DNA from: Ilumatobacteraceae bacterium
Lineage (GTDB): Bacteria; Actinomycetota; Acidimicrobiia; Acidimicrobiales; Ilumatobacteraceae
Direction of reading: 5' to 3'
Assembly (NCBI GenBank): GCA_024644465.1
Contig: JAHEKY010000024.1
Coordinates: forward strand, 1 to 34,785
DNA length: 34,785 bases
Part shown: one piece after another, positions 137-34,785 of the stretch
Position numbering within the stretch: position 1 is the first letter of the stretch
How the letters are laid out: each line of letters begins with the position of its first letter
Notes under the pieces: model-generated
What the model was told of the DNA's origin: nothing
Databases searched by the model: none
Seen by the model: the letters and a program-made list of their open reading frames with translations, nothing else
Made by a program: the position numbers and the translations under genes

Positions 137-501
137 GGGCGGCGGATCGACTGCCAGGTCGCGAGGATCTCGTGGCGGTCGAGCGGCGCGATCCGGTCGG
201 CAACGACCAGGTTGACGTTCGCCGCGACGATCGCCTCGTTCGCGGCCCGCACCAGGGCGACCACGTCGGCCTCCGACTCGGCCTGCCAGAACGCGACTCG
301 AGCCTTCGCCACCGCGGCGACCGCGACCTTGCGCCGGTCGTGGCTGAGTTCGCGGCGGACGAACTGCTCCGCCCACCACCCATCGGGCCGGTGTTCGTCG
401 ATGCCGGGGATCGGCTTGCCCTGCAGCGGGCCGGCGTCCAGCTCGCCGGACTGCGCCGCATCGGCCAGCCGCTGCTCGACCATGCGCGCGACCCAACTCA
501 T
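130..501 (-). CDS. DUF1992 (DnaJ-homologue subfamily C member 28-like) protein, 123 aa
   Basis: The protein begins MSWVARMVEQRLADAAQSGE and continues with a GPLQGKPIPGIDEHRPDGWW stretch. This is the conserved signature of DUF1992: a helical start with an E-R/I-I-x-x-A-x-x-x-G-E-x-D motif followed by G-x-G-K-P-[IL]. The domain fills the whole small cytosolic protein, and no J-domain is present. Its biochemical function is unknown. An upstream in-frame ATG at 636 would add 45 residues overlapping the ABC ATPase gene. I chose the ATG at 501 because a TACGAT box (508-513, minus strand) sits 6 nt before it, the leaderless arrangement common in this window, and because the family begins near here. 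It lies 31 bp downstream of the ABC ATPase gene. Confidence 0.8.
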   Translation of the reverse strand: MSWVARMVEQRLADAAQSGELDAGPLQGKPIPGIDEHRPDGWWAEQFVRRELSHDRRKVAVAAVAKARVAFWQAESEADVVALVRAANEAIVAANVNLVVADRIAPLDRHEILATWQSIRRPS

Positions 502-31668: not shown

Positions 31669-31677
31669 CGCGGTCAG
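31665..31677. terminator. Small palindrome spanning two convergent stop codons
   Basis: CTGAC (31665-31669), GCG, GTCAG (31673-31677) contains the TGA of the sulfurtransferase and the TGA of the EamA gene on the other strand. With a one-base bulge the stem extends to GGC/GCC. It may be a weak bidirectional terminator; there is no U-tract. Confidence 0.3.
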
Positions 31678-32600
31678 GCCGCCGCGACGACCGGCTCCGG
31701 AACGGCGGCGGGCTCCGATCGCAGCATCAGCCAGACGACGGCGCCGATGATCACCGCGCCGCCGCCGAGCGTCGCGAGGCTCGGCTGCTCCCCCGGCCAG
31801 ATCCACACCCAGAGTGGGGCCAGCACGACTTCGGTCATCAGCAGCAGGGGGACTCTCGCCGCGGCGACCGAACGATGGCCGAGGTTGAACAGCGGCAGCC
31901 CGATGCCGAGCGCGATCCCGCCGGACACGATCGCCATGGCGAGGTCCCGCCAGCTGACCGTGAGCCCGGTCTGGACGGCGGCGAACACGCCCGTGCCGAT
32001 CGCGAGGAACGAACCCGCGAGCAGCGTCGGGATGACGGGGTCGACGCCCGACGCCGAACGTTGCAGGACGCTGTACAACCCGATCAGCACGGGGATCAGC
32101 GCGGCGAACAGCAGCCCGAGCGCCGAACCGGTTTCGAGGCCGGCGCCGACCATGATCGCCACGCCGACCGCGGTGACGCTGATCGCGGTGAGCGTCGACC
32201 GCTCGACGCGCTCGCGCAGCAGTACCCAGCCGATGATCGCCGCGAAGACGGGCGCGGCCGCGAGCAGGAACAGCGTCGTCGCGGCCGATGTCCGTGCCAG
32301 CGCCAGGATGTAGAACATCGATGTGGCAGCGAGCACGAGCGAGGCCGCCCACGTCGTGCGGGTGACACCGGCGAACACGACTGGGCGGCGGCCGCGGCGG
32401 GCGACGATCAGCAGCACCATCGCGGCGGCGGTCGACAGGCCGCGATAGGTGAGGAACTGCAGTTCGCTCGCCTCCTCGACGGCGCGGTAGGCGACGGCGG
32501 TGCAACTGAACGCGACGCCCGAACCGGCCACGAGGATCGCCCCCTGACGTTCGGTCAGTTCACCCTCGCCGAGAAACGCGCGTGCCACCGCCCGGATCAT
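31674..32600 (-). CDS. EamA/DMT-family transporter (10 TM), 308 aa
   Basis: A drug/metabolite-superfamily permease with two EamA repeats. Repeat one covers ~15-140 (GVAFSCTAVAYRAVEEASEL, YRGLSTAAAMVLLIVARRG, SMFYILALARTSAATTLFLL, PVFAAIIGWVLLRERVERST). Repeat two covers ~165-300 (ending VPLLLMTEVVLAPLWVWIWP, GEQPSLATLGGGAVIIGAVV). The R-E-R-V and G-E-Q-P motifs at the end of each repeat are typical. It sits in the cytoplasmic membrane; the substrate is unknown (amino-acid-like metabolite exporters are common). ATG 32600 has TAGGAT (minus strand, 32607-32612) 6 nt upstream. It lies 23 bp downstream of the RelA/SpoT-LOTUS gene on the same strand but appears to carry its own promoter. Confidence 0.9.
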   Translation of the reverse strand: MIRAVARAFLGEGELTERQGAILVAGSGVAFSCTAVAYRAVEEASELQFLTYRGLSTAAAMVLLIVARRGRRPVVFAGVTRTTWAASLVLAATSMFYILALARTSAATTLFLLAAAPVFAAIIGWVLLRERVERSTLTAISVTAVGVAIMVGAGLETGSALGLLFAALIPVLIGLYSVLQRSASGVDPVIPTLLAGSFLAIGTGVFAAVQTGLTVSWRDLAMAIVSGGIALGIGLPLFNLGHRSVAAARVPLLLMTEVVLAPLWVWIWPGEQPSLATLGGGAVIIGAVVWLMLRSEPAAVPEPVVAAA

Positions 32601-32623: not shown

Positions 32624-34006
32624 TCACGTGAGCAGCCATCGGGCGACGGCGGCCCGGCGGCTGGCGTTCGCCGGTTCGATGATCCTCAGATCGGCCATCC
32701 GCTGCAGCGTCGACTCGACGAATTCCTCGGCGAGCCGGGACGCCGGCAACGGCGTACCGTCGTCGTCGCCGGCGAGCACCGCTTTCGCCACATAGTCGAG
32801 ATGGCGCCGGGAGATCGGCTCGCCGGTCGCCGCAGCACCGTCGCGGGCGGCGCGCGTCAGCTCGTTGAGCATGCGCGTACTCGGCGGTCGCGGCCCCATT
32901 TCGGCCCATGCATCGGCCAGCGAACCGTAGATCCGCGCCCACTGCGACGCGTCGACGAGCGGGAACCCGCGGTCGATGCGCCGCAGCCGTTGTGCCTCGT
33001 CCGGCGGTGCCGCGCTCGCCGCGTCGTCGGCGGCCTCCGGTGTCGCGACGTCCGCGTCAGGTGACGGCCGGCCGGCGGTCGGCGGCAGCAGGTACGCCTG
33101 GCGCCCCGTGCTGATCTCGCCGTCCGGCAGGACATGGCGGAGAAACCGTTTGAAGTTGTTGTGCCCGAACCAGTCGTCGCTGACTTCGGCACCGAACTCT
33201 TTCTGCAACGCCCACGCCAGCGACGACAGCTCGACGGGGCGGTCGAGCTGGTGCCAGCGGTCGAGCAGCATGCTCGCGGCGTCGGCGGCGACGCCGGAGA
33301 TCGCGGCTCGCTGATCCGGTTCGTCACTGGCGGTCTCGGCGACGACCGCTTCGTCGAGGCGGTCGAGTTCGGTGCGCAGGTCCTCCGCGATGTCGTCGAG
33401 CGTCGCGAGCAGGTCGGCCATCCGCTTGCTGAGGATCTCGACGAGCGGCGGCAGTTCGCCGGCCTTGCTGTACGTGTCTTCGTGCGTCAGCTCGCCCCAG
33501 CTGTCCTGGAGCAGCGTGCGGATCTGCAGCTCGCACGTCACGCGTGTGCGGCCGAGGAGCAGCCTCAGGTTGACGTGCCACCCTCGATAGCCGGAATCCT
33601 TCGGGGCGTCGACGTAATCGCGCTCGGTCGTCGGGTCGAGCGCGAGCGGTCGCTTCTGCCGCGGCGCGCGCGGCAGGTTGTCGAGGGCAGCCTGGACCAT
33701 CTCGAGGTCGCGGAGGTTGGTGCACGTGATCCGCAACCCGATGAGGTCGTCGACCACGTCGGGAATCTCGTCGACACTGGCGACGTGGTAGCGCTGCAGC
33801 TTGCGCCATGTCCGCCGCTTCGACTTGACACGGCCCGCGACGTTGCGGATGCGCGCGAGGTCACGATCGGACAGGAGGTCGTCGAGTTCGGTCGCGAGCA
33901 GCGTCGACGCGAGTTCGAGGGCAGGTTCGAGTGTCTCGGCACGGAACTGGTCGTACCAGGTGCCGAACTGGTCGTAGCCGAACGACGGCCCGCTCGCGGA
34001 GTCCAC
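32624..34006 (-). CDS. RelA/SpoT synthetase-domain protein fused to a LOTUS (OST-HTH)-like domain, 460 aa
   Basis: Residues ~25-215 match the RelA_SpoT nucleotidyltransferase (alarmone synthetase) domain with catalytic features intact: the basic ATP-site segment GRVKSKRRTWRKL (58-70), metal Asp87 in VVDDLIGLR, G-loop Tyr140 and His144 in SGYRGWHVNL, and Glu159 in CELQIRTLLQDSWGELTHED. There is no HD hydrolase domain. Residues ~245-308 (SMLLDRWHQLDRPVELSSLA...WFGHNNFKRFLRHVLP...AYLLP) resemble an OST-HTH/LOTUS RNA-binding winged helix. An acidic Ala/Pro linker (309-340) leads to a further ~120-residue helical domain I do not recognise. It may make (p)ppGpp or another pyrophosphorylated nucleotide, or modify RNA. 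GTG 34006 is preceded by TATCGT (34015-34020, minus strand) at 8 nt. Confidence 0.82.
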   Translation of the reverse strand: MDSASGPSFGYDQFGTWYDQFRAETLEPALELASTLLATELDDLLSDRDLARIRNVAGRVKSKRRTWRKLQRYHVASVDEIPDVVDDLIGLRITCTNLRDLEMVQAALDNLPRAPRQKRPLALDPTTERDYVDAPKDSGYRGWHVNLRLLLGRTRVTCELQIRTLLQDSWGELTHEDTYSKAGELPPLVEILSKRMADLLATLDDIAEDLRTELDRLDEAVVAETASDEPDQRAAISGVAADAASMLLDRWHQLDRPVELSSLAWALQKEFGAEVSDDWFGHNNFKRFLRHVLPDGEISTGRQAYLLPPTAGRPSPDADVATPEAADDAASAAPPDEAQRLRRIDRGFPLVDASQWARIYGSLADAWAEMGPRPPSTRMLNELTRAARDGAAATGEPISRRHLDYVAKAVLAGDDDGTPLPASRLAEEFVESTLQRMADLRIIEPANASRRAAVARWLLT

Positions 34007-34074: not shown

Positions 34075-34785
34075 GTGGGGACACCGTCGCAGCCGAGCGC
34101 CGCGAGCCAACCGACGGTGCGATCGGCCGCCCGCGCGGACTTCGCTTCGTCGTCCGGTGTGCAACGCGCCGCGCTGGTCGGCGTCGTGTTCTGGTTGGCG
34201 TACGAATGGGGCGCGGGCAACGAAGCGTTCACCCCGTGGCTGATCGCCCGCACGATCGCGTCGACGTCCGGTTACGGCTCGATCCCGATCGTCGCCGCGG
34301 TCGGCTTCGGCTTCACCCTCGTCCAGCAGCTCGTGTCGGGGTTCACGGCACTGATCGGCTTCTCGATGTTCGACCGGACGTCCGGCGCGGCGTGGCGGCG
34401 GTTGACGGCTCGGCTCGGCTCCGAGCCGACGACGTGGTCCGATCTCGGCGTCCTCAGCCAGAGCGCCGTCGTGTTCGGGCTCGGAACGACTGCGGTCGTG
34501 CTGATCGAGACGGTGACGAGCGGTGACGCGCGATGGCGCACCCACCGCCGCACCGTGGTGCGCAGCGCGACGCTGTGTGCGCTCGGCGTCGGCCTGATCG
34601 CCGGGCTCGCCGCCGGGCTCGCGCTGATCGGGCGGCGCAACGACGCGCTGCGCGGCACGACCGATCTGGTGCTCCGGGTCTTGGGCAACCCGTTGCTGTG
34701 GATCGGCCTCGTCTGCGTCGTGTTGCTCGTGCAGTACGTCAGGACGCCGAAGACGGACGCCGGCGCCACGCTCGGCGACGTCGAA
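34075..34785 (+). CDS. Multi-pass membrane protein, truncated by the window end (237 codons seen)
   Basis: An open frame starts at GTG 34075 and runs to the last base without a stop. The first ~28 residues are polar (Ser/Ala/Pro-rich). Hydrophobic stretches follow at ~31-45 (RAALVGVVFWLAYEW), ~68-98 (SIPIVAAVGFGFTLV, then LVSGFTALIGFSMF), ~126-147 (LSQSAVVFGLGTTAVVLIE), ~164-186 (SATLCALGVGLIAGLAAGLA) and ~203-222 (LGNPLLWIGLVCVVLLVQY), giving at least five spans. I do not recognise the family. The frame is supported by lack of stops, hydrophobic periodicity and a TAGGTT box 7 nt before the GTG. It is divergent from the RelA-LOTUS gene. Confidence 0.7.
   Translation, partial: MGTPSQPSAASQPTVRSAARADFASSSGVQRAALVGVVFWLAYEWGAGNEAFTPWLIARTIASTSGYGSIPIVAAVGFGFTLVQQLVSGFTALIGFSMFDRTSGAAWRRLTARLGSEPTTWSDLGVLSQSAVVFGLGTTAVVLIETVTSGDARWRTHRRTVVRSATLCALGVGLIAGLAAGLALIGRRNDALRGTTDLVLRVLGNPLLWIGLVCVVLLVQYVRTPKTDAGATLGDVE

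What the first reader, a model, noticed from the sequence alone, without database searches (positions are those of the whole stretch)
32624..34006. Alarmone-synthetase domain fused to a LOTUS-like RNA-binding domain plus an unknown C-terminal domain
The nucleotidyltransferase residues appear intact (Asp87, Tyr140, His144, Glu159), yet there is no hydrolase, TGS or ACT region as in Rel. Instead residues ~245-308 look like an OST-HTH/LOTUS winged helix, followed by an unrecognised ~120-residue domain. LOTUS domains bind RNA and in bacteria are mostly known attached to NYN nucleases. A synthetase guided by an RNA-binding module could make an alarmone in response to an RNA ligand, or pyrophosphorylate RNA itself, as some toxic small alarmone synthetases do with tRNA. 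The fusion is read from the sequence; the role is speculation.
Basis: partly seen in the sequence, partly recalled or inferred. Interest (0 to 1): 0.7.

Follow-up and report, generated by a model that had tools for sequence, protein, structure and literature searches.

The report
Alarmone synthetase with RNA-binding-type tail
This bacterial gene encodes an enzyme that looks able to make the stress signal (p)ppGpp, joined to two modules of a kind that bind RNA in animals and that other bacteria carry on an RNA-cutting enzyme instead, which suggests an RNA-controlled alarm switch; no activity has been tested.

Summary
The fusion is real. The 460-aa minus-strand ORF (34006-32624) has three parts. 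(1) A small-alarmone-synthetase (SAS) domain, nearest to RelQ/RelP in sequence and predicted fold, with the named catalytic residues invariant in 21 homologues. (2) A divergent LOTUS/OST-HTH winged helix at residues 236-310. The window protein itself gives no Pfam hit, but one distant homologue matches OST-HTH just under the cut-off, and the model's closest structures are the LOTUS domains of TDRD7, Oskar and Tejas. Its only listed PDB fold match is the RNA stem-loop-binding ROQ domain of Roquin (Z 8.7, tentative). The LOTUS and C-terminal domains also occur together behind an NYN nuclease in other actinobacteria, so nuclease and synthetase look like interchangeable heads on one tail. All three domains are under purifying selection. 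The gene is rare. In Acidimicrobiia it matches its surroundings in GC. Eight scattered members elsewhere are compositionally foreign, and four lie beside known or candidate defence genes. Best explanation: an RNA-responsive (p)ppGpp synthetase. RNA binding, product and role remain inference. Novelty: a new variant of the SAS kind; I found no published description.

The parts
32624..34006 (-). Complete gene, 460 aa: SAS synthetase + LOTUS-like + C-terminal ROQ-like domain
   Evidence: ORF; 26 homologous loci including the window; purifying selection
33341..33985 (-). RelA/SpoT-type synthetase domain, residues 8-222 (PF04607 core 58-182 = 33461-33835)
   Evidence: PF04607 E 4.5e-17; PDB YjbM/RelQ 2e-14 single sequence, 6.7e-22 by profile; model Z 15.6 to 6fgk
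33530..33748 (-). Catalytic residues Asp87 (33748-33746), Tyr140 (33589-33587), His144 (33577-33575), Glu159 (33532-33530)
   Evidence: Invariant in 21 homologues; aligned to the equivalent residues of YjbM
33077..33301 (-). Divergent LOTUS/OST-HTH winged-helix domain, residues 236-310
   Evidence: PF12872 9.1e-5 in homologue L028 at this position; model matches TDRD7 3rco Z 7.0, Oskar 5cd8 Z 6.8, Tejas 8wxs Z 6.4; hhalign 96.5%, E 8.8e-10 to the same domain of NYN proteins
33005..33076 (-). Disordered linker, residues 311-334
   Evidence: pLDDT under 50 over 313-331; dN/dS about 1.1
32627..33004 (-). C-terminal six-helix domain, residues 335-460, ROQ-like; shared with NYN nucleases
   Evidence: pLDDT about 95; ROQ domains are ranks 1-10, Z 8.0-8.7; hhalign 96.2%, E 2.4e-9 to the C-terminal domain of NYN proteins
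31674..32600 (-). EamA-type transporter gene, same strand, 23 bases downstream; not considered part of the system
   Evidence: PF00892 1.2e-17; also found near the homologue in L009 and L010, not near the others

Best explanation
A stand-alone small alarmone synthetase whose activity is set by RNA. Shown here (by sequence and prediction): an intact RelQ/RelP-type synthetase domain; behind it a LOTUS-like winged helix and a ROQ-like helical domain; the same tail carried by NYN nucleases; selection on all three domains; a classical long Rel elsewhere in the genome. Inferred: the LOTUS and ROQ-like domains bind a structured RNA, either host mRNA under stress or phage transcripts, and binding switches the synthetase on or off, so that (p)ppGpp is made and growth slows. 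The long Rel with its HD domain could remove the product. The family has a resident form in Acidimicrobiia and a mobile form in islands with defence genes; the mobile form would act as an antiphage growth brake.
For: Synthetase: PF04607, PDB profile hits RelQ 6.7e-22, RelP/SAS2 about 1e-20, CapRel 7e-8, Z 15.6 to SAS2, invariant active site. RNA-type tail: LOTUS and ROQ structural neighbours, OST-HTH hit in a homologue, and the same two domains behind an NYN RNase-type domain (PF01936 6.7e-16; L132; hhalign). Precedents: RelQ binds single-stranded RNA with sub-micromolar affinity (PMC11782079), and RelZ is an RNase HII-SAS fusion inhibited by ssRNA (PMC7591505). Second synthetase: long Rel at G000:C102 with both PF04607 and HD_4. 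Mobility and defence: gene GC is 5-19 points under locus GC in all 8 scattered members and within about 3 points in Acidimicrobiia; Lamassu A/B/C beside L029, PDC-S65 SIR2 and AbiEii near L027, HEC-07/NsnC beside L031, PD-Lambda-5_A near L025.
Against: No RNA, product or phenotype was measured. Net charge of the LOTUS domain is mostly slightly negative (-7 to +3), and that of the C-terminal domain ranges from -8 to +9, so charge does not argue for RNA binding. The ROQ match is structural only, with Foldseek E above 1. Some LOTUS domains bind a protein (Vasa, PMC5458760, abstract). The defence link rests on 4 of 8 loci, is absent around the Acidimicrobiia members (0 of 83 neighbours apart from generic mads models), and control loci also show some defence hits.
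Confidence: 0.42

Rival explanations
1. The tail steers the enzyme to an RNA substrate: it pyrophosphorylates an RNA 3' end (tRNA CCA or another), like CapRel or FaRel2, stopping translation.
For: SAS enzymes can modify tRNA CCA ends (PMC11782079). A stem-loop-binding tail would suit a structured substrate. NYN enzymes with the same tail presumably act on RNA.
Against: The synthetase domain is much nearer to the (p)ppGpp-making RelQ/RelP than to CapRel (6.7e-22 against 7.3e-8), and no antitoxin or neutralising partner is conserved beside it.
Confidence: 0.18
2. The LOTUS and C-terminal domains are protein-protein or oligomerisation modules, and the enzyme answers to a protein partner rather than RNA.
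For: LOTUS domains of Oskar, TDRD5 and TDRD7 bind Vasa (PMC5458760, abstract). Net charge of the tail is near neutral or negative in many members. The ROQ similarity is a fold similarity only.
Against: The same tail sits behind an NYN nuclease. No conserved neighbour encodes a partner.
Confidence: 0.27
3. An ordinary constitutive SAS in which the tail has no regulatory link to the catalytic domain (for example only localisation).
For: SAS without this tail are common in the phylum (19 of 376 sampled genomes besides this one gave a match, essentially over the synthetase part only).
Against: LOTUS and C-terminal domains are held under dN/dS about 0.13, like the synthetase, and of the 26 loci only L027 lacks the C-terminal domain without being cut by a contig end or an N run.
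Confidence: 0.13

Closest known systems
RelQ / RelP small alarmone synthetases (YjbM, YwaC; PDB 5dec, 6fgk, 6ewz)
   Same: Same synthetase fold and active-site residues; similarity runs into the helix after the catalytic core (to residue 219). RelQ also binds ssRNA.
   Different: RelQ and RelP have no LOTUS or ROQ-like tail.
RelZ (MS_RHII-RSD, Mycobacterium smegmatis)
   Same: An SAS domain fused to an RNA-related domain; ssRNA affects activity (PMC7591505).
   Different: RelZ carries a catalytic RNase HII at the N-terminus, not an RNA-binding-type tail at the C-terminus.
CapRel and toxSAS (FaRel2, PhRel)
   Same: SAS fold; sensor domain or partner controls activity; antiphage role.
   Different: The synthetase domain here is nearer to RelQ; no antitoxin gene is conserved and no pseudo-zinc-finger antitoxin domain was recognised.
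Bacterial NYN (DUF88/LK-nuclease)-LOTUS proteins
   Same: A subset found here shares the divergent LOTUS-position domain and the same C-terminal domain.
   Different: The catalytic head is an NYN nuclease. In most bacterial LOTUS proteins seen here the C-terminal ROQ-like domain is absent.
ROQ domain of Roquin-1/2
   Same: Predicted fold of residues 335-457 aligns over 114-116 of about 150 residues, Z 8.0-8.7, rmsd about 3.2.
   Different: 8-11% identity, no flanking HEPN, RING or zinc finger; RNA-contact residues not compared; homology not shown.
Actinobacterial SAS-S1 proteins (L032-L078, L080-L084)
   Same: An SAS domain plus a different RNA-binding-type domain (S1, PF00575 8.7e-5 in L032).
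   Different: A separate group in the SAS tree; no LOTUS or ROQ-like domain.

Membership tests
Small alarmone synthetase (RelA/SpoT homologue) | PF04607 domain above cut-off | tested here: met
   62.8 bits against cut-off 27; all 21 homologues match
Small alarmone synthetase (RelA/SpoT homologue) | Intact synthetase active site (Asp, Glu, G-loop Tyr, His, basic ATP site) | tested here: met
   Invariant in 21 sequences; aligned to YjbM
Small alarmone synthetase (RelA/SpoT homologue) | No HD, TGS or ACT domains (short RSH) | tested here: met
   No such Pfam hits in the window protein; the one HD_4 match of the genome lies in the separate long Rel
Small alarmone synthetase (RelA/SpoT homologue) | Makes (pp)pGpp or a related alarmone | not testable with these tools
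   Needs an enzyme assay
toxSAS / CapRel | Sequence grouping with toxic SAS | tested here: inconclusive
   CapRel is a far weaker PDB match than RelQ (7.3e-8 against 6.7e-22); no tree with named toxSAS was built
toxSAS / CapRel | Cognate antitoxin gene or fused antitoxin domain | tested here: inconclusive
   No conserved neighbour across loci, which argues against a partner gene; the tail is not a known antitoxin domain but could have that role
LOTUS / OST-HTH (PF12872) | Profile match over the curated cut-off | tested here: not met
   No hit in the window protein; best homologue 22.7 bits against 23.8. Called LOTUS-like, not filed as a PF12872 member
LOTUS / OST-HTH (PF12872) | LOTUS winged-helix fold | tested here: met
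   Model pLDDT about 94; nearest structures for that half are TDRD7 (Z 7.0), Oskar (6.8), Tejas (6.4), though other winged helices follow closely at Z 6.7 and below
ROQ domain (Roquin) | ROQ fold | tested here: inconclusive
   Ranks 1-10 by VIA-align, Z 8.0-8.7, no other fold listed for that region; Foldseek E 1.5 and above, prob 0.1-0.5; helical domains can reach such Z by chance
ROQ domain (Roquin) | RNA-contact residues and stem-loop binding | not tested
   No residue-level structural alignment to ROQ-RNA complexes was made
Antiphage defence system | Location in defence islands | tested here: inconclusive
   4 of 8 scattered loci beside known or candidate defence genes; none of 8 Acidimicrobiia loci; some hits in control loci too
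Antiphage defence system | Protects cells from phage | not testable with these tools
   Needs plaque assays

The most novel reading that the evidence does not exclude
A bacterial RNA-sensing immune or stress protein in which one RNA-recognition tail (LOTUS plus what would be a prokaryotic ROQ-type domain) is fitted with interchangeable catalytic heads, an NYN nuclease that destroys RNA or an alarmone synthetase that raises (p)ppGpp, so that recognition of a structured (for example phage) RNA triggers either RNA decay or a growth stop.
Probability: 0.25. Interest if true: 0.82.

Novelty: new variant of a known kind. Interest (0 to 1): 0.58.

Why it matters
Alarmone synthetases are known to answer to ribosomes, proteins, a phage capsid protein and, for RelQ and RelZ, free ssRNA. 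A synthetase with a built-in tail of LOTUS and ROQ-like domains would be a direct RNA-to-second-messenger switch. The exchange of synthetase for NYN nuclease on the same tail predicts that both act on the same class of RNA, which is testable. If the ROQ similarity is homology, it gives a bacterial relative of a domain known from animal mRNA control, in the company of LOTUS and NYN, which also meet in animal MARF1 (PMC6294520, abstract).

Tried and rejected
Direct PF12872 hit in the window protein: none. Direct profile-profile match of this LOTUS domain to canonical bacterial NYN-LOTUS domains: weak, 8% probability, E 0.004, though in the expected register; the link runs through the NYN proteins L090 and L132. 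Conserved operon partner or antitoxin: none beyond close synteny with L009/L010. Plasmid, phage and viral copies of the full architecture: none; hits cover only the synthetase domain of other SAS. PADLOC PDC-S33 hit (2.9e-15) covers only the synthetase part (54-170), so it is not evidence that this protein is that candidate system. Foldseek against BFVD gave nothing significant. Net charge of the tail as an argument for RNA binding: inconclusive. L133, a weak C-terminal-domain hit in a 770-aa ATPase-type protein, was set aside as chance. Rfam: no RNA family in the window. Literature: no paper found that joins SAS with LOTUS/OST-HTH; Anantharaman 2010 reports bacterial OST-HTH almost only with DUF88/LK-nuclease; Atkinson 2011 lists 30 RSH subgroups and the passages read name only DUF429 as an extra SAS domain. 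Searches covered open-licence papers only. Genus- and order-level prevalence around L024 and L028 could not be run.

Full report
What is there. The minus-strand ORF 34006-32624 (GTG start, 460 aa) is as described. Homologues align from about residue 8, which fits this start better than the upstream GTG at 34084. Pfam gives RelA_SpoT at residues 58-182 with E 4.5e-17, and no HD, TGS or ACT domain. Best solved relatives are YjbM/RelQ (2e-14) and YwaC/RelP. With a 21-member profile these become 6.7e-22 and about 1e-20, while CapRel is at 7e-8. The AlphaFold model of the whole protein (pLDDT 80.8) aligns to SAS2 with Z 15.6. Asp87, Tyr140, His144, Glu159, and also Arg59, Lys61, Lys136, Gln161 and Arg163, are invariant in 21 homologues. 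The genome also encodes a classical long Rel with HD and synthetase domains on contig C102, so this is an additional synthetase.

The LOTUS part. PF12872 does not hit the window protein even at E 1. Among 21 homologues two match it, the better one (L028, Parvularculaceae) at 9.1e-5 over its residues 262-327, the segment aligned to window 236-310, with 22.7 bits against a cut-off of 23.8. An AlphaFold model of the C-terminal half reaches pLDDT 90. In a structural comparison, the nearest solved structures for residues 236-310 include LOTUS domains at the top: TDRD7 3rco Z 7.0, Oskar 5cd8 Z 6.8, Tejas 8wxs Z 6.4. Other winged helices (Rok Z 6.7, Smc5/6 6.4) follow closely. The domain is therefore LOTUS-like and divergent; strictly it fails the Pfam cut-off.

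The C-terminal part. They form six confident helices. All ten top structural matches are ROQ domains of Roquin-1/2 (Z 8.0-8.7, mostly 114-116 of about 150 residues, rmsd mostly 3.2-3.5), and no other fold was listed for that region. The full-length model gave the same match (Z 8.2). Foldseek itself gave E above 1, and helical domains can reach such Z by chance, so 'ROQ-like' is tentative. ROQ binds stem-loop RNA through a winged-helix part (PMC4614863).

The tail is shared with nucleases. A profile of the C-terminal half, searched in 396 genomes of the phylum, found one other protein, L090, which begins with an NYN nuclease domain (PF01936 6.7e-16) followed by the same two domains. A search with the C-terminal domain in one family of the phylum found L132, NYN-LOTUS-C (7.2e-12), and L131, NYN-C without LOTUS (4.3e-13); L091 is also NYN-C. 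Profile-profile comparison links the LOTUS domains (96.5%, E 8.8e-10) and the C-terminal domains (96.2%, E 2.4e-9) of the SAS and NYN proteins. A negative comparison behaved as expected (0.7%). Bacterial LOTUS is otherwise known almost only with DUF88/LK-nuclease (NYN-type) (PMC2848206), and the LOTUS proteins read here in sampled genomes also carried NYN-type heads without the C-terminal domain. The simplest reading is one tail with two kinds of catalytic head.

Selection and distribution. Between the window and L009 dN/dS is 0.13 (synthetase), 0.14 (LOTUS), 1.14 (linker), 0.13 (C-terminal domain); other pairs agree, with some saturated dS values. The full architecture is rare: 4 of 267 good genomes in the class, and only the window's own genome among 376 sampled from the phylum. 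It occurs across Acidimicrobiia and in single strains of Streptomyces, Patulibacter, Frigoribacterium, Microbacterium, Nocardia, a solirubrobacterium and an alphaproteobacterium; the Cellulomonas member lacks the C-terminal domain. In a tree of synthetase domains the 26 members fall on one side of a branch (support only 74); the Acidimicrobiia clade has support 100.

Two life styles. In Acidimicrobiia the gene's GC equals that of its surroundings within about 3 points. In all eight scattered members it is 5-19 points lower, which points to recent arrival. Beside these lie a complete Lamassu LmuA/B/C (L029; 5e-81, 1.4e-183, 1.4e-35), a HEC-07/NsnC-type gene (L031; 2.8e-17 and 6.1e-18), an integrase and a PD-Lambda-5_A homologue (L025; 3.1e-27), and a SIR2 PDC-S65 protein with an AbiEii fragment (L027; 3.7e-124, 1.2e-23). 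In batches scanned at E 1e-15, at least seven of 92 neighbours of the scattered members hit defence models (mads models left out), against about three or four of 100 neighbours of SAS-S1 control loci and none of 83 neighbours of Acidimicrobiia members. The samples are small, so the defence link is suggestive for the mobile branch only. No neighbour is conserved, and no copy was found on plasmids or phages.

How it probably works. The synthetase domain should be active, and by similarity should make (p)ppGpp or pGpp. The tail probably binds structured RNA and sets the enzyme's activity; RelQ and RelZ are precedents for control by ssRNA (PMC11782079; PMC7591505). The main doubt is RNA binding itself: LOTUS domains can bind proteins, the tail is not consistently basic, and the ROQ match is structural only. 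Direction of control (activation or inhibition) is unknown. tRNA or other RNA as substrate, as for CapRel and FaRel2, is a live rival.

Novelty. I found no published SAS with a LOTUS or ROQ-like tail in the open-licence library. The enzyme is a known kind; the architecture and the head-swap with NYN nucleases look new.

Noticed in passing
L032-L078, L080-L084 (e.g. L032:7001-7870, L040:6944-7828): Rhodococcus, Brevibacterium and relatives carry another SAS type with a C-terminal S1-like RNA-binding domain (PF00575 8.7e-5, over cut-off in L032; the L040 protein gave no S1 hit but has a similar C-terminus by eye). A second SAS fusion to an RNA-binding-type domain.
   Followed up: partly
L030:8754-9707: The gene after the Nocardia member encodes a protein with a LOTUS-like segment at its N-terminus (own LOTUS profile, 13.7 bits, E 2.3e-6 for one sequence).
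   Followed up: partly
L156:5801-8341 (G670): The NYN-LOTUS-C gene lies next to a second gene with a LOTUS domain (E 1e-24) and an NYN-like N-terminus by eye, same strand.
   Followed up: partly
L159:463-6766 (G061): An NYN-C gene without LOTUS stands in a same-strand cluster with a ThiF/E1-like gene (read by eye), a setting reminiscent of ubiquitin-like defence operons.
   Followed up: no
L027:6965-8026: The Cellulomonas member ends after the LOTUS domain; no remnant of the C-terminal domain was found in the locus, so a SAS-LOTUS form without it exists.
   Followed up: yes
H27 (FR725450.1, Nitrososphaera phage Pro-Nvie1): An archaeal provirus record carries a protein annotated with an N-terminal Rel_Spo-like domain.
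   Followed up: no
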